A stretch of 64,000 nucleotides of DNA from Candidatus Heimdallarchaeota archaeon (GCA_019056785.1 DXJV01000059.1:62001-126000), one strand, 5' to 3'; positions 35,210-41,928 are shown, counted from the first letter of the stretch. Program-made: numbers and translations. The notes: generated by a model not told the origin, from the sequence alone.

Positions 35210-38176
35210 GTGTGTGAGTTAATTATGAGACGTGGAAGAATCCTCTCATTAGGTTTATTAGCTCTCTTTCTTTTAGGAGCATTAACTCCTTTTGTACTTA
35301 CTAAAGCAACGATTCCTGAAAGTGAAGAGAGTGACACAATCATTTTCCGTCAGCAAATTGTAGATGCAAACGGAGATAAGATTGAAGATAAACTAATGAG
35401 AACAATTGAAAACCAAGATGATTACGTTGTGGATGTGGTTTTGACCTTTAACCACAAAATCACCGATTATGACCTCACCAAATTGGCACGAGCTGGCGTT
35501 ACCGTTTCAAAGGAAATTTGGAGCATGGGGCATAAGGTCAAGGTTTCAACAACAATAAATAATATTGAAACCTTAGCAAACTATCCAGATATTGAACTTG
35601 TTTCTTCAGCAGAAATTCGTTATATTATGGTGGCAATCGATGGTGATGACTACTCAGATCTCGCGGCACTTGAGAAATACGATGCTGAGATCTTCTGGGG
35701 AGTGGGTTGTGCACTTGTTCGCTATTACTCAGGCATAGAAGATGATATCAAACTTTTGGGTGATTATACTGCCATCCAAGATACTACTGATATCCGATTT
35801 ACAACACAAGTACTAGAACCCGAAGAAACAGAAGTCACAATAAATACTCTGCATACTGCGCAAACAATTAATGCAACAGGGATGTGGGATTTGGGCTTTG
35901 ATGGTTCAGGGATAAAGGTGGGGGTAATTGATTCTGGTATAAATCAAAATCATGTCGACTTTAGTGGGCGTGTAATAAATGTTCAAAGCTTCATCAAAGT
36001 TGAATATGGATACGATGAAGATGACACAACCCCCGATGATGTGGATGATCACGGTCACGGAACGCATGTTTCCGGAACAATCGCAGGTGATGGAACTGCA
36101 AATTCCAACTACATCGGAATGGCACCTCAAGCATTAATTTATATGGCAAAAGTAGGCTCGACTGCAACTCTTCAAGCAATAATTGCAGCTCTTGATTGGT
36201 TAGTGAACACCATTAAAGTTAAGACAATTAATTTTAGTATGGGTGCTACTGACACACCTGGAGAGACAATCTCAGAAATTGCTTGGAAGAATGCCATTCG
36301 AAATAAAAAAGTCGTTTGTGTTACTTCTGCAGGAAATGAAGGAGATAATGGCTATTACACAATGGGCGCTCCAGCAGCTTTAGCAGATATCATTGCAGTT
36401 GGTGCAGCAGATGACACTAGTTCACCTGTTTCTTTTGCTTATTTCACTTCTCGGGGACCAACAGCTGATGATCAAGTAAAACCCGATGTTCTCGCACCTG
36501 GTTATGCGATTTGGGCACCAGCACATGATAGTAATACTGGTTATAGAGAATTGTATGGTACTTCAATGGCTTCACCACACGTCACTGGTGCTGTTGCTTT
36601 ATTAATCGAGGCATGTCAAAGCTCAGGGATTGCATATAATCCTGGACTGATTAAAGCAGCATTAATGAAAACAGCTGAGTCTATCAATGTCGACATTTTA
36701 ACCCAAGGTCGTGGTGTTATCAATGTCGGAAAAGCTTGGACATATATTTTGCATGCTCCTACAGTTGACTCTTATCGACTTGTTGGCACTTCCATTCCTA
36801 CCGTTGAACCTCTCTTCTGGTGGGAGGACCTTCTCCAAGGACAAGTGACAGAGCAATACCTTACATTTGTTTCACCTTACAAAGTTAATCTTTCAATAGA
36901 AATTACTGGCGCAGCTGCAAGCTTTATTACATCAGAAGTTATTCGAACCCATTGGTCCACAGTCTATAAAGTGACTTTTAGCATCCCCTTAGATACTACT
37001 GTGGGTCACTACACAGGAAGTATTGACTTTAAATATAATGATTATGTCTTGGAAACCATCTCTATCGATTTCAATGTTGTCGCAAGTAATGGTAAACGAA
37101 TGCTCTTGAATTACGGAACTACAGATTGGGGTATAGACCATATGTATGGCCAATACCGCCATTTTAGTGCAGACATTTTAGATAACAAATACGTTATAAG
37201 CGAGCAAAAAACATCCTTAGACTCCGGCATTTTGGATAATTATGAAGCAGTCTGGTTGCCTGATCCCTTTTCATTAGACTTCCCAAATGCTTATCAAGGA
37301 GATTACAATGCTACGACTCCAACTGCTTGGACTGAAAGCGAACGAACTGCTTTAACACAGTTTGTTTCAAATGGCGGAACCGTTTTCATCTGTTTCCTTG
37401 GACCAAACGAAGAAGATATAGAAGGATTCGGTACAATTGTTACAGGGACAAATGTTTCCACTATCAATGAATGGACAATGCAATATGGCATTGAAGCTCG
37501 TCATACCTATTTCACCAAACCAACACCAATTATTGTTCATCCAAATGGAAGTCATCCAATAACATATGGTGTCACAGGTGTTGATCACTATGGAACATCC
37601 TTGAAAATCTCTGGCGATGCGGTTAATGTTGTTAAAGTGGCTGAAGGGTCAAACTATGCTACTTTGGCGGTTTATCAGCATCCTAATGGTGGACGTGTCA
37701 TTGTCTGGACAACCAATTTTGCTCTTGATAGTGAAGGGTACAAAAACAAATACAATGGTATCCTTACACAAAATGATGTCCTCGGTCGGAACCTAGTCCG
37801 GTGGGCATTAGCAAAACACCGAATACAAAGAACTAACATTACAGTTGAAAAGAAAACTGTAACTCTTACCTATAAATATCTCAGCGGTCCTGGCGCAGAC
37901 TTTAGCGGCAAAGTGAGTTTCCCAGATGGTTCTGAAGAAAGCCTTACCTTCACTGATATCGGTAATGACCTTTGGCAAACACAATTCGAAGCCGGAAAAG
38001 AAGGACTCTATGACATTCTAGTCGAATGTGGCCCCTCTGGCACAGACGATTTTGATTATTACCAATTCAATTTCGCCAAATCCGGTGGTATTGGTATCAG
38101 TCCAATTGTCGTTGTTTTACTCACCAGTTTTGGTTTAGCAGCTTGGTATCTTGTTCAAAGATTCCGACGAAAATAA
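35210..38176 (+). CDS. Secreted, membrane-anchored subtilisin-like serine protease
   Basis: A 988-residue S8 protease. A signal peptide is at about residues 8-30 and an I9-like propeptide at about 45-140. The catalytic triad is Asp241 (VGVIDSGINQNHVDF), His283 (DHGHGTHVSGTIAGDG) and Ser452 (YGTSMASPHVTGAVALLIEA). A long C-terminal region has immunoglobulin-like strand segments and a GATase-like segment (EAVWLPDPFSLDF, WTESERTALTQFVSNGGTVF). A membrane helix at about 962-982 ends FRRK. It should act on the cell surface. ATG 35225 (MRRGRILSLGLL) is a better signal-peptide start than GTG 35210; numbering here is from 35210. It precedes the profilin-like gene by about 175 bases. Confidence 0.92.
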   Translation: MCELIMRRGRILSLGLLALFLLGALTPFVLTKATIPESEESDTIIFRQQIVDANGDKIEDKLMRTIENQDDYVVDVVLTFNHKITDYDLTKLARAGVTVSKEIWSMGHKVKVSTTINNIETLANYPDIELVSSAEIRYIMVAIDGDDYSDLAALEKYDAEIFWGVGCALVRYYSGIEDDIKLLGDYTAIQDTTDIRFTTQVLEPEETEVTINTLHTAQTINATGMWDLGFDGSGIKVGVIDSGINQNHVDFSGRVINVQSFIKVEYGYDEDDTTPDDVDDHGHGTHVSGTIAGDGTANSNYIGMAPQALIYMAKVGSTATLQAIIAALDWLVNTIKVKTINFSMGATDTPGETISEIAWKNAIRNKKVVCVTSAGNEGDNGYYTMGAPAALADIIAVGAADDTSSPVSFAYFTSRGPTADDQVKPDVLAPGYAIWAPAHDSNTGYRELYGTSMASPHVTGAVALLIEACQSSGIAYNPGLIKAALMKTAESINVDILTQGRGVINVGKAWTYILHAPTVDSYRLVGTSIPTVEPLFWWEDLLQGQVTEQYLTFVSPYKVNLSIEITGAAASFITSEVIRTHWSTVYKVTFSIPLDTTVGHYTGSIDFKYNDYVLETISIDFNVVASNGKRMLLNYGTTDWGIDHMYGQYRHFSADILDNKYVISEQKTSLDSGILDNYEAVWLPDPFSLDFPNAYQGDYNATTPTAWTESERTALTQFVSNGGTVFICFLGPNEEDIEGFGTIVTGTNVSTINEWTMQYGIEARHTYFTKPTPIIVHPNGSHPITYGVTGVDHYGTSLKISGDAVNVVKVAEGSNYATLAVYQHPNGGRVIVWTTNFALDSEGYKNKYNGILTQNDVLGRNLVRWALAKHRIQRTNITVEKKTVTLTYKYLSGPGADFSGKVSFPDGSEESLTFTDIGNDLWQTQFEAGKEGLYDILVECGPSGTDDFDYYQFNFAKSGGIGISPIVVVLLTSFGLAAWYLVQRFRRK

Positions 38177-38354: not shown

Positions 38355-38717
38355 ATGTCGTTTGAAGCTGAAGCAGCAAGATTACAAAGAGAAGGAATTG
38401 TTGGTGCACTCGCACTTATTGGTGCTGATGGGCAAGTTTATTGGCAAACACCCAATTGGCAGGTGGATGGTCGGTCAATTATCGAGGCTTGGACGAAAAA
38501 AGCCCCCTGGGTAGTAGTCCAAGGAGTAAAGTATTCTACCATTGATATCACTAACAACAGGTTAATTTGTACTAACGTTCAACAACAGGGACATGTCATC
38601 ATTGCGAAAACACCTTTCTGGCAAGGATTTGTAATGGCCTGGTGTTCACCCGCAAACCCAGTAAGGTTAATTTATGTTGATGTTGCAAAACTGGCATCAA
38701 CAGTAAAGCCCGGTTAA
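38355..38717 (+). CDS. Profilin-like small protein (roadblock-like as the alternative)
   Basis: A 120-residue protein starting at ATG 38355, 8 bases after AGGAG (a TTG lies directly before it). The strand and helix order fits profilin. It has an N-terminal helix (EAEAARLQREGI), then GALALIGADGQVYWQTPNWQ, equivalent to profilin's 'aaIiG.dG.vWA.S..f'. A helix follows (GRSIIEAWTKKAP), then VVVQGVKYSTIDI, equivalent to 'l.GvKY..i', then strands leading to HVIIAKTPFWQGFVMAWCSP, equivalent to 'gv.i.KT.qaliig.y...'. A C-terminal helix (RLIYVDVAKLAS) closes it. Asgard profilins are established; they bind actin and, in some, polyproline. The next gene, 52 bases away and convergent, encodes repeated polyproline tracts. 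A roadblock/LC7 fold has related topology and remains possible. Confidence 0.5.
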   Translation: MSFEAEAARLQREGIVGALALIGADGQVYWQTPNWQVDGRSIIEAWTKKAPWVVVQGVKYSTIDITNNRLICTNVQQQGHVIIAKTPFWQGFVMAWCSPANPVRLIYVDVAKLASTVKPG

Positions 38718-38769
38718 ACTCGAGGGCTCATACCGCCTTGGCTCTTTCCTCCCTCTCCTTTTTTATTCT

Positions 38770-41700
38770 TTAGCCTGTTTCAAAAATATTTTGACTTATG
38801 TCTTCTTTTTCTTGTACAAAAATAGTCCCTTTTTCTACTACTTTAATTTCTGAGAGATCAATACCTGTCACATTCATCTGGGTGAGGTATTTGCCATATT
38901 CTTGAAGGGAAGTGACCTTTTTACCGACGATAAGTGATTTTAAGATATTGTGCGTACAAAGTGAGTCTTTAAAGTTCACACCAATCGCCCCCATGACTGA
39001 TTTTGAAATATCATCCATAACTTCCTTTTCGACAGTTGCATTTGTAAAAAGCATGGCAATTTCCCTCGAGAGTTTTTCACTGATGAGAAGTACCGGCTTA
39101 TCAGAGAGTGAGATACCAAGGCTCATGCCGAGATGTCTTCCGGATAATCCTCTTACGCGAAGGCAAGCTAAGGGATAAACTTCGCTTGGATGGAAGAGTC
39201 GACTAGCATTTCGGAGAATAACTTTTGATTTTGTTTGTTTCTCGATCGCTCCCCCCGAAGCGAACATCCTGAAGGAATTTAAAATTTCATGTGGTAAGAT
39301 GGGGAAGTAACGCTGCAAAGAATAATTGATTAAAGTCTTCGGTTTTAAAGCCTCGCCTTCTGGAATGCGCAATTGTTTTGCAATGAGGTATTTTAGCAAC
39401 CAAACTCTTTCTTTAGGATTTTCTTCTGTAATCTCTAATCTTTGAACAAAATAGTCGACCAATGACAGGTCAGGCACGCCGGTATTTATAAGGAGCAATT
39501 TTCCAAGTAAGGGGTGAAAGACAATGGCAATTATTTTTCCGATTTTTTGTCCTTGGCTGTAATAACAATCTTTGCCGATAGGCGTATGTTCTTCAGTAAC
39601 CAGTTTTCCATCCCAGGGAGCGGTTCGATAAGGTTTCAAAGGAAGAATGGCATTTTGTTGGCAAACAATCATTCCTTGTTTTATGCGGATTTTGTCAACA
39701 GGTAAAATGCCAATTTGCTCCCGGTTGGGGGTGGCAATTTCATTTGGATAGTTAATATTTCTAAAGTTGGCAAATTCTTGTAATCGTGTTGTATGGAGTG
39801 CCACATCACGAGTCACACGGAGGGCTTCTACAACTTCATTTATAACGTACTCCTTCCGTTTTTCAGCAGATTCGAGGTAATCTTCAGTGATCCAGAGGGG
39901 TTTTATCTGATCAAAAATCCTATCAATAATAGCTTGGTTTGCAGAGGATTCAGAAACAAGCATAAAGCCTAAGTGATTTTTATCGAAAATAACTACCTCT
40001 TGAATGTAGCCTTCAAAATTTCTTTTTGCGTTATCTTGAAGTGTGAAAACAGCTTTCCCTGCAAGCTTCCATGCTTCTGATGACGCCTCAACAAGCTTTT
40101 TCGTAATCATAGATGTTCGTTGTGGCTTTATAAGGTCCACCGAGGTTTGTACTTGTGCTTCTTCTGCTGGTGGGGGCGGAGGCGGTAGGGGTTCTGGTTT
40201 TACTTTATCTTTAACAATTATCTCTTCAGTTAGCTCATCAATAGGTCGTTCTATGGCTTTATGTGCAACTTCAATTGCGGGTGCTTTTTCAGGTGGCGGT
40301 GGTGGTAGTGTTTCTGTTTTGGCAAAGTCTGTTGGCATATCTGGCGGTGGGGGTGGCAATCCTTCTTCTTCGGGCGCTGCACTTTTTTCCGTCGGTGGGG
40401 GAGGAGGTGGAAGGGTTTGTGGTGGTGGCGGTGGGGGGAGAGACTCATTTGCTGAAGAACTTTCTTCCATAACAACTTCATCTGTTAGCTGCTCTAGGCT
40501 ATCTGTACTAGCTGGCTGTGCTATTGAGGAGTCTTTTTGTCCCAAGCTTTTCTTAACGAGGTCGCTTTTAAGAGGGGCGAATTTTACTTTTCGTTTTACC
40601 TTTGGCTTTTGTTCTTCAGGAGCCATTTCAGCTGGTGGTGGTGGGGTTGTTGGAGTTGTGGCTGTTGTCCCTGCAGCTGCTGGAGTATCACTGCCATTAT
40701 CAAGCAGTTTTTCCAATAGACCTTCAAAAGATTGGAAAATGATTTGCTTTGTAGCATCATTAATTTTATCACTCGAAGTAGCATAGACTTCGATGGGTGA
40801 ATTAAACTCTTCTAATCCACCAATAACTTCGATGTCAACATTTGGCTGAAAAACAACTTCGGGTGTTTCTGGGATTACAAATTTGTCTGTTGGTTCTTCT
40901 TCTTGTTTCTGTTCCAAAGCATCTTGCTCGGTAGTTAAAGAGGAATCTATGTCTATTAAAAACAAGCCGATGTGGTCCGAGCTTTCTTGTTCATCTACTA
41001 TTGTTTTTAAGAAGGGGTCTATCTCTTCTGAATGTTGAGTGCCAGTAGTAGTTTCTTGGGTGAGTGTTTCAATTCCAAAATCCATTGGCTCAGAAAACTC
41101 GAGTGATTCATCGATAGAAAGAACATCATCTTCTTCCAATAGTGAAAGACATTTCGAATATTCTCTAATATCTTCTGCTAACAGGGAAATATAATCTTTA
41201 ATTTCATTGATCATTTGCTGGTAATCCAACAAGGACTTAAAGTCTGGCAAACCATTTTTTTGTTTGCTGACACTAATCTCCATTTGGGAGGTTTTCATGG
41301 TCGCCAACATTTCAGCTAAAGTGCGTCGATACTCTTCTCGGAGTTCAATCTCTTTCTTTAGATCCCTAGCAATTTCCTTCAGTTCATTTTCATTTTTAAT
41401 GCCATGACCAAAAGAGAATTTTTGATAGTTTTCAAGGGCAAAGCGAAGTAAATCACCTTTTGAAGGATTGCGTTTCAGATATTTTTCCCGGGCACCATAG
41501 CGGTTTTCTGCAAGTCGCAGATCAAATTCAAGGGTTTCAAGTTTCACACTTGCAGCTTCAACATTAACTTTCTTTTCAGCAATTAATAACTTCAATTTGT
41601 GGATGTTATGTTTGAGTCCTTCAATGTTTTTTTCCAATTCTTTGATTTCGCGCCGGATTTTCAGGTGGCGGTAAAAATGACGGGGGATATTAAAAGTTGG

Positions 41701-41928
41701 CAACAAATCTTCTATTGTTATTTTCCCCATAAACCGTTCTACACTGAACGGGATTTCTTTATTTTGGACTGCAAGCATGAATTCTTTGTCAGTCAATTCT
41801 TCAGTTCTTCGCAATTGTTGCTCATAGATTTGCATCTTTCGTTCAAAAGTCTCAGAATCAATTTCCTCGAGGGCATATTTTTTCTCCAATTCCATGATTT
41901 TTCTGAGGATAACAATTCTGTCTTTCAT
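38770..41928 (-). CDS. Coiled-coil protein with formin-like polyproline tracts and PRC-barrel-like C-terminus
   Basis: A 1052-residue cytosolic protein. Residues about 1-270 are largely coiled coil, rich in Lys/Glu/Leu heptads. Residues 270-425 are acidic and disordered-looking. Residues about 425-590 contain a TPPPP run and then five tracts of five or six prolines, spaced by 6 to 40 residues (ESLPPPPPPQTLPPPPPP, GLPPPPPDMP, TLPPPPPEKAP, EPLPPPPPPAEE), as in formin FH1 or Ena/VASP regions. All four proline codons are mixed, so the tracts look selected at protein level. The last 440 residues are globular, with PRC-barrel-like segments (APWDGKLVTEEHTPIGKDCY, GKIIAIVFHPLLGKLLLINT) seen also in CdvA-type proteins. 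No FH2 domain is recognised. It is convergent with the profilin-like gene. Confidence 0.7.
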   Translation of the reverse strand: MKDRIVILRKIMELEKKYALEEIDSETFERKMQIYEQQLRRTEELTDKEFMLAVQNKEIPFSVERFMGKITIEDLLPTFNIPRHFYRHLKIRREIKELEKNIEGLKHNIHKLKLLIAEKKVNVEAASVKLETLEFDLRLAENRYGAREKYLKRNPSKGDLLRFALENYQKFSFGHGIKNENELKEIARDLKKEIELREEYRRTLAEMLATMKTSQMEISVSKQKNGLPDFKSLLDYQQMINEIKDYISLLAEDIREYSKCLSLLEEDDVLSIDESLEFSEPMDFGIETLTQETTTGTQHSEEIDPFLKTIVDEQESSDHIGLFLIDIDSSLTTEQDALEQKQEEEPTDKFVIPETPEVVFQPNVDIEVIGGLEEFNSPIEVYATSSDKINDATKQIIFQSFEGLLEKLLDNGSDTPAAAGTTATTPTTPPPPAEMAPEEQKPKVKRKVKFAPLKSDLVKKSLGQKDSSIAQPASTDSLEQLTDEVVMEESSSANESLPPPPPPQTLPPPPPPTEKSAAPEEEGLPPPPPDMPTDFAKTETLPPPPPEKAPAIEVAHKAIERPIDELTEEIIVKDKVKPEPLPPPPPPAEEAQVQTSVDLIKPQRTSMITKKLVEASSEAWKLAGKAVFTLQDNAKRNFEGYIQEVVIFDKNHLGFMLVSESSANQAIIDRIFDQIKPLWITEDYLESAEKRKEYVINEVVEALRVTRDVALHTTRLQEFANFRNINYPNEIATPNREQIGILPVDKIRIKQGMIVCQQNAILPLKPYRTAPWDGKLVTEEHTPIGKDCYYSQGQKIGKIIAIVFHPLLGKLLLINTGVPDLSLVDYFVQRLEITEENPKERVWLLKYLIAKQLRIPEGEALKPKTLINYSLQRYFPILPHEILNSFRMFASGGAIEKQTKSKVILRNASRLFHPSEVYPLACLRVRGLSGRHLGMSLGISLSDKPVLLISEKLSREIAMLFTNATVEKEVMDDISKSVMGAIGVNFKDSLCTHNILKSLIVGKKVTSLQEYGKYLTQMNVTGIDLSEIKVVEKGTIFVQEKEDISQNIFETG

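What the first reader, a model, noticed from the sequence alone, without database searches (positions are those of the whole stretch)
38355..41928. Profilin-like protein next to a protein with formin-like polyproline tracts
Two adjacent convergent genes (52 bases apart) encode a 120-residue protein with profilin-like motif order (GADGQVYWQ, VQGVKY, AKTPFWQGFVMAW) and a 1052-residue coiled-coil protein with five runs of five or six prolines. Profilin binds actin and polyproline; formins and Ena/VASP use polyproline to recruit profilin-actin. The mixed proline codons argue for selection at protein level. The large protein lacks an FH2 domain that I can see, so it may be a new, FH2-free polyproline actin regulator with a PRC-barrel-like C-terminus. 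Profilin in Asgard archaea is established; a neighbouring polyproline partner would be new.
Basis: partly seen in the sequence, partly recalled or inferred. Interest (0 to 1): 0.85.

Follow-up and report, generated by a model that had tools for sequence, protein, structure and literature searches.

The report
Archaeal profilin beside coiled-coil scaffold gene
This Asgard (Heimdall-group) archaeon has a genuine profilin gene beside the gene for a large, previously undescribed coiled-coil/barrel protein; the two genes stay neighbours across distant relatives, but the formin-like proline runs that drew attention occur in only part of one genus, so the gene partnership looks real while the proline mechanism is unproven.

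Summary
The 120-aa protein is a genuine Asgard profilin: AlphaFold pLDDT 93, best PDB match OdinProfilin (TM 0.88), no roadblock match. It keeps the G-x-x-Y-W patch through which heimProfilin contacts polyproline; Odin and Loki profilins, reported not to bind, lack that Trp. The 1052-aa neighbour has a charged helical N-terminus, a disordered linker with five LPPPPP(P) runs, and a confident C-terminal domain (pLDDT 88) of three related modules whose nearest solved folds are PRC barrels (CdpB1/CdpB2), at weak significance. It matches no Pfam, NCBIfam or PDB family and has no FH2.

Two results change the story. First, the proline runs are not conserved: 5, 2, 1, 1, 0, 0, 0, 0 runs of five or more prolines in eight genus members, and none in the homologs examined from other families. 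Second, the C-terminal domain family is far older than the runs and sits beside profilin in 9/9 genus members (convergent) and 14/19 genomes of another family (divergent); these two genes are the only ones their neighbourhoods share. In the window's genome all five LPPPPP-type motifs lie in this gene. Best reading: a conserved profilin-associated scaffold family, on which one sub-lineage elaborated possible profilin-docking sites.

The parts
38355..38717 (+). Asgard profilin, 120 aa; Y29/W30/G26 correspond to heimProfilin Y52/W53/G49 (polyproline contacts)
   Evidence: phmmer to OdinProfilin 5zza E=5e-22; AF2 pLDDT 92.7; Foldseek TM 0.88, profilins throughout the matches with E<0.001; W30 alignment
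38770..41928 (-). 1052-aa profilin-linked scaffold protein: helical/coiled-coil-like N-terminus, disordered linker, three-module PRC-barrel-like C-terminal domain
41089..41928 (-). N-terminal charged helical/coiled-coil-like region, residues 1-280 (conserved in genus, 80% majority identity over residues 1-270)
   Evidence: composition, conservation; weak SMC coiled-coil match
40093..41088 (-). low-conservation, Pro/Glu-rich, presumably disordered linker, residues 281-612 (50% majority identity, 16% Pro)
40420..40437 (-). LPPPPPP run 1 (residues 498-503)
40393..40410 (-). LPPPPPP run 2 (residues 507-512)
40342..40356 (-). LPPPPP run 3 (residues 525-529)
40291..40305 (-). LPPPPP run 4 (residues 542-546)
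40168..40185 (-). LPPPPPP run 5 (residues 582-587)
40555..40581 (-). conserved short linear motif FAPLKSDLV (residues 450-458; F-x-[SP]-L-x-x-[DE]-[LIV] in 7/7 genus members), better conserved than the proline runs
38773..40116 (-). C-terminal domain, residues 605-1052, three related barrel-plus-helix modules
   Evidence: AF2 pLDDT 88.2 pTM 0.85; module-module hhalign E 5e-7, 9e-6, 2e-4; Foldseek top hits CdpB1/CdpB2 and other PRC barrels, E 0.01-1

Best explanation
The pair is a genuine Asgard profilin plus a member of a new Asgard scaffold family: an elongated helical N-terminus, a fast-evolving disordered linker and three PRC-barrel-like modules. Because the family stays beside profilin across two Heimdallarchaeia families whose other flanking genes differ, I infer that the two proteins act in one process: a cytoskeletal, membrane or division scaffold that positions or regulates profilin-actin. 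In the window's sub-lineage the linker has gained LPPPPP runs, which probably add weak, multivalent docking for profilin through its Y29/W30 patch, like an FH1 segment without FH2. Shown: the profilin fold, the family, the domain layout, the conserved neighbourhood, and the non-conservation of the proline runs. Inferred: shared process (about 55%), direct profilin binding to the runs (about 35%), effect on actin (not testable here).
For: Profilin; actin gene in the same genome, PF00022 E=8e-133. Family: C-terminal profile found in all 9 genus members, all 23 f4 and all 12 f2 genomes searched plus one other Asgard family strongly; a Wukongarchaeum homolog; g1-f4 and g1-g2 profile alignments E=4e-10 and 8e-9. 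Neighbourhood: profilin adjacent and convergent in 9/9 g1 genomes; in f4 same contig, usually divergent about 150 bp apart, in 14 of 19 genomes with both genes; only these two of 54 window ORFs have matches in the f4 neighbourhoods. Polyproline patch: W30 aligns with W in the two polyproline-binding Asgard profilins (heim LC3, thor), but with Y in Odin and T in Loki-1/2, reported non-binders (PMC8410842). All 5 [LF]PPPPP matches of the genome are in this gene; 2/2 in G005 and 1/1 in G006 likewise.
Against: Proline runs are absent from sister species G007 and G008 and reduced in G001 and G004, though all keep W30 and the adjacency. f4 homologs next to profilin have no such runs. In Hodarchaeales-type f2 genomes the family exists but is unlinked, 1.3 and 2.4 Mb away in two single-contig assemblies. 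The window profilin lacks a C-terminal aromatic like heimProfilin F147. Measured Asgard profilin-polyproline affinities are only about 0.2-0.5 mM at best (0.3 mM without, and 3.3 mM with, the heimProfilin N-terminal extension), and the closest solved relative, OdinProfilin, is reported not to bind (PMC8410842). No known actin-binding domain was found in the large protein.
Confidence: 0.5

Rival explanations
1. Adjacency is old gene order with no shared function, and the proline runs are near-neutral expansions in a disordered linker.
For: Runs appear, vanish and multiply within one genus. Other unrelated linkers in sister genomes carry equally long LPPPPPP runs: an MIT-domain protein and zinc-ribbon/membrane proteins. 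f2 genomes have lost or never had the linkage.
Against: Between f1 and f4 no other neighbouring gene is shared and the relative orientation has changed, yet these two remain adjacent. All five LPPPPP motifs of the window's genome are in this gene, with mixed codons and no DNA repeat.
Confidence: 0.25
2. Profilin and the scaffold do interact, but only through the conserved parts (PRC-like modules, coil, or the FxSLxx[DE][LIV] linker motif), and the proline runs serve something else or nothing.
For: The linkage persists where proline runs are missing; the motif is present in 7/7 genus members and the C-terminal domain across families.
Against: No direct evidence for any interaction. The motif is not found in f4 or in most f2 homologs.
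Confidence: 0.23
3. The large protein is a formin or Ena/VASP relative with a diverged FH2 or EVH1.
For: FH1-like LPPPPP runs and coiled coil.
Against: No FH2 over threshold in any of 57 class genomes; no formin or EVH1 match in Pfam or PDB sequence. The C-terminal model is a three-module beta-barrel protein whose nearest folds are PRC barrels, not a helical FH2.
Confidence: 0.02

Closest known systems
Asgard profilins (OdinProfilin 5ZZA, LokiProfilin 5YED/5ZZB, thorProfilin 7PBH, heimProfilin 6YRR)
   Same: Fold, length and sequence: E 5e-22 to Odin, TM 0.88. Heim-like Y-W patch.
   Different: No N-terminal extension, unlike heim and thor profilins. W30 where Odin has Y and Loki T. No C-terminal aromatic.
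CdpB1/CdpB2 and other PRC-barrel proteins (8QZO, 8ONW, 3HTR, MTH1859)
   Same: Nearest solved folds of the C-terminal domain; each module has a PRC-like glycine-spaced barrel pattern visible by eye.
   Different: Three modules in tandem with helical inserts, a long helical N-terminus and a linker; Foldseek E 0.01-1 only; not recognised by Pfam PRC (PF05239).
CdvA (PRC-barrel plus coiled coil, archaeal ESCRT-type division)
   Same: Combines a PRC-barrel-like domain with a coiled coil (CdvA's N-terminal PRC barrel: PMC11188069; its coiled coil from general knowledge).
   Different: Order reversed (coil N-terminal, barrels C-terminal), three barrels instead of one; homology to CdvA not tested.
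Formins / Ena-VASP (FH1-type LPPPPP runs)
   Same: Leu-preceded runs of 5-6 prolines next to a helical region.
   Different: No FH2 or EVH1 found; runs not conserved; no evolutionary relation.

Membership tests
Profilin | Sequence similarity to profilins | tested here: met
   phmmer to 5 Asgard profilin sequences, E 5e-22 to 3.5e-8; Pfam PF00235 22.6 bits, E 1e-4, slightly below the 25-bit cut-off
Profilin | Profilin fold rather than roadblock/LC7 | tested here: met
   AF2 pLDDT 92.7; named PDB matches with E<0.001 are profilins, none roadblock
Profilin | Aromatic polyproline-binding patch | tested here: inconclusive
   W30, Y29, G26 match heimProfilin W53, Y52, G49; F3 conserved; C-terminal aromatic absent
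Profilin | Binds actin | not testable with these tools
   Actin gene present in the genome
Formin | FH2 domain | tested here: not met
   Pfam scan of the protein; no over-threshold FH2 in 57 class genomes
Formin | FH1-like polyproline runs | tested here: met
   five LPPPPP(P) runs in this species, but not conserved in relatives
PRC-barrel protein | Recognised by Pfam PRC (PF05239) | tested here: not met
   No PRC match in the protein or homologs; the own-genome search rings at five other places, not this gene; profile alignment with those is weak
PRC-barrel protein | PRC-barrel fold | tested here: inconclusive
   Best Foldseek hits are PRC-barrel proteins repeatedly, but E 0.01-3
Ena/VASP | EVH1 and EVH2 domains | tested here: not met
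   No Pfam or PDB sequence match

The most novel reading that the evidence does not exclude
A prokaryotic, FH2-free profilin-recruiting scaffold: a coiled-coil/PRC-barrel protein that couples profilin-actin, through independently evolved LPPPPP runs, to archaeal membrane or division machinery; an FH1-like logic that arose separately from formins.
Probability: 0.17. Interest if true: 0.88.

Novelty: new variant of a known kind. Interest (0 to 1): 0.57.

Why it matters
How Asgard archaea regulate actin is central to the origin of the eukaryotic cytoskeleton, and few candidate partners of Asgard profilin are known. The conserved neighbourhood names a concrete, testable candidate family found in Hodarchaeales-type genomes, two other Heimdallarchaeia families and Wukongarchaeum. 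The within-genus variation in proline runs is a natural series (5, 2, 1, 0) for asking whether polyproline-profilin coupling is a recurrent invention.

Tried and rejected
Roadblock/LC7 fold for the small protein: rejected. Formin, FH2 or Ena/VASP identity: rejected. DNA-level repeat as the origin of the proline runs: no tandem repeat found, codons mixed. PRC membership by profile against the genome's own PRC proteins: too weak to decide. NCBIfam: no real family, only coiled-coil noise. Plasmid copies: none. A co-fold of profilin with the proline peptides or actin was not possible with the tools. The first own-genome profilin search by Pfam model found nothing because that model misses this profilin. 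One synteny script omitted the window by a naming error and was repeated with it. The first linker script read the loci on the wrong strand and was repeated.

Full report
What is there. The window lies in a 2.87-Mb, 102-contig assembly (contig C31). Its close relatives are labelled Candidatus Heimdallarchaeota or 'Asgard group' archaea, and more distant members of the same class are labelled Hodarchaeota or Heimdallarchaeota. The two genes are as described: profilin 38355-38717 (+) and a 1052-aa ORF 38770-41928 (-), convergent, 52 bases apart. The same genome encodes a bona fide actin (PF00022, E=8e-133).

The small protein is a profilin. Sequence search finds five Asgard profilin sequences with solved structures, OdinProfilin first (E=5e-22). 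A model from a 24-sequence alignment has pLDDT 92.7 and superposes on OdinProfilin with TM 0.88 and 1.5 A rmsd; the listed PDB matches with E<0.001 are profilins, none roadblock. Profilin was found in 50 of 57 related genomes.

Its polyproline patch is partly of the binding type. NMR shifts in heimProfilin upon polyproline binding include G49, Y52 and W53 (PMC8410842). In the printed alignment these are G26, Y29 and W30 of the window protein. Trp is present at this site in both Asgard profilins reported to bind polyproline (heim LC3, thor); Odin has Tyr and Loki-1/2 have Thr, and these were reported as non-binders (PMC8410842). The window protein lacks an aromatic near the C-terminus comparable to heimProfilin F147. 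W30 is invariant in the genus, including members whose large protein has no proline runs, so it is no evidence for this particular partnership.

The large protein. Residues 1-280 are charged and helical/coiled-coil-like, 281-612 are a poorly conserved Pro/Glu-rich linker, and 613-1052 are conserved (majority identities 0.80, 0.50 and 0.81 for 1-270, 271-612 and 613-1052). It has no significant Pfam, NCBIfam or PDB sequence match. The C-terminal 448 residues are predicted confidently (pLDDT 88.2, pTM 0.85) and consist of three related modules (hhalign E 5e-7, 9e-6 and 2e-4 between modules). The best Foldseek hits are CdpB1/CdpB2 and other PRC-barrel proteins, repeatedly but with E of only 0.01-3. 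I take this as PRC-barrel-like, not as proven membership. CdpB1/B2 are components of FtsZ-based archaeal division (PMC12186497), and CdvA carries an N-terminal PRC barrel (PMC11188069), which makes a division or membrane scaffold role plausible but untested.

The proline runs are real but not conserved. Runs of five or more prolines number 5 in the window species, 2 in G005, 1 in G006 (which also has a PPPP), 1 in G003, and 0 in G004 (APPP), G001 (PPPP), G007 and G008. On a tree built without the linker the runs need at least three changes among these species. Homologs in family f4, which also sit beside profilin, have none. The window species is nonetheless striking: all five of its genome's [LF]PPPPP-coding matches are in this gene, and the same is true of 2/2 in G005 and 1/1 in G006. 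Sister species carry LPPPPP runs in other proteins instead: an MIT-domain protein in G003 and G004, and zinc-ribbon/membrane proteins in G001, G007 and G008. Polyproline sites therefore seem to move among disordered linkers in this genus.

The neighbourhood is conserved beyond the genus. A profile of the C-terminal domain finds the family in all 9 g1, all 23 f4 and all 12 f2 genomes searched, one further Asgard family strongly, and a few others weakly; a Wukongarchaeum homolog has 757 aa. The g1-f4 and g1-g2 profile alignments cover 415 and 353 columns with E=4e-10 and 8e-9. In g1 the gene is next to profilin in 9 of 9 genomes, convergent. In f4 it is on the same contig within about 3 kb in 14 of 19 genomes where both genes were found, usually divergent with about 150 bp between starts; one of these is a split assembly in which the N-terminal fragment lies beside profilin. 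The remaining five lie on separate contigs, several of which end at the relevant place. In f2 the two are unlinked, 1.3 and 2.4 Mb apart in two single-contig assemblies. Of 54 window ORFs only profilin and this gene have matches in the f4 profilin neighbourhoods. The pair is thus not just part of a long conserved block.

Mechanism. The best-supported account is a profilin-associated scaffold family whose link to profilin predates the proline runs. In the window's sub-lineage the runs may add weak multivalent docking for profilin, as FH1 segments do in formins (analogy from general knowledge), without an FH2 domain. The affinity reported for Asgard profilins is about 0.2-0.5 mM at best (PMC8410842), so several sites in series would matter through avidity. 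None of this has been shown biochemically, and the alternatives (contact through conserved parts, or no functional link) are listed with their tests.

Limits. Genomes are MAGs of 63-96% completeness, so absences and separate contigs are uncertain. Adjacency counts are not phylogenetically independent: two families contribute, so the evidence amounts to about two independent retentions.

Noticed in passing
G000:C70:29189-30766 (L193:3189-4766, - strand); ortholog L192:2989-4602: A 526-aa paralog of the large protein in the same genome: charged helical N-terminus, proline-rich linker (KPPPPREEFVPPPHEEPIRPPPRRY) and two barrel-like repeats; the window-genome copy shares the linker motif NFAPLKSEV.
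   Followed up: partly
window 40555-40581 (-): Short linker motif FAPLKSDLV (F-x-[SP]-L-x-x-[DE]-[LIV]) present in 7/7 genus members although the linker around it is poorly conserved; a candidate binding motif that no tool named.
   Followed up: partly
L228:1211-2002 (-), L226:1135-1917 (-): MIT-domain protein (Pfam MIT E about 9e-9) with LPPPPP(PP) and [IT]PPPPP runs in two sister species: a possible link between ESCRT-type machinery and profilin.
   Followed up: partly
L234:613-1533 (+), L231, L235: Zinc-ribbon/membrane proteins with repeated LPPPPPP and PPPPPGY runs in the sister clade whose large protein lacks proline runs.
   Followed up: partly
L175, L177-L182, L109 (f4 profilin loci): In f4, profilin is flanked by a small ORF of about 100 aa, a 188-aa conserved protein with no Pfam match and an ATP-dependent DNA ligase; relatives of several of these also lie near profilin in family f3.
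   Followed up: no
window 35210-38176 (+): A 988-aa subtilase next to profilin; ORFs of similar size hold that place in other members of the genus (L097, L098, L101).
   Followed up: no
window 40043-40786 (+): A 247-aa glycine-rich ORF antisense to the proline runs; almost certainly a mirror of the proline codons, not a gene.
   Followed up: no
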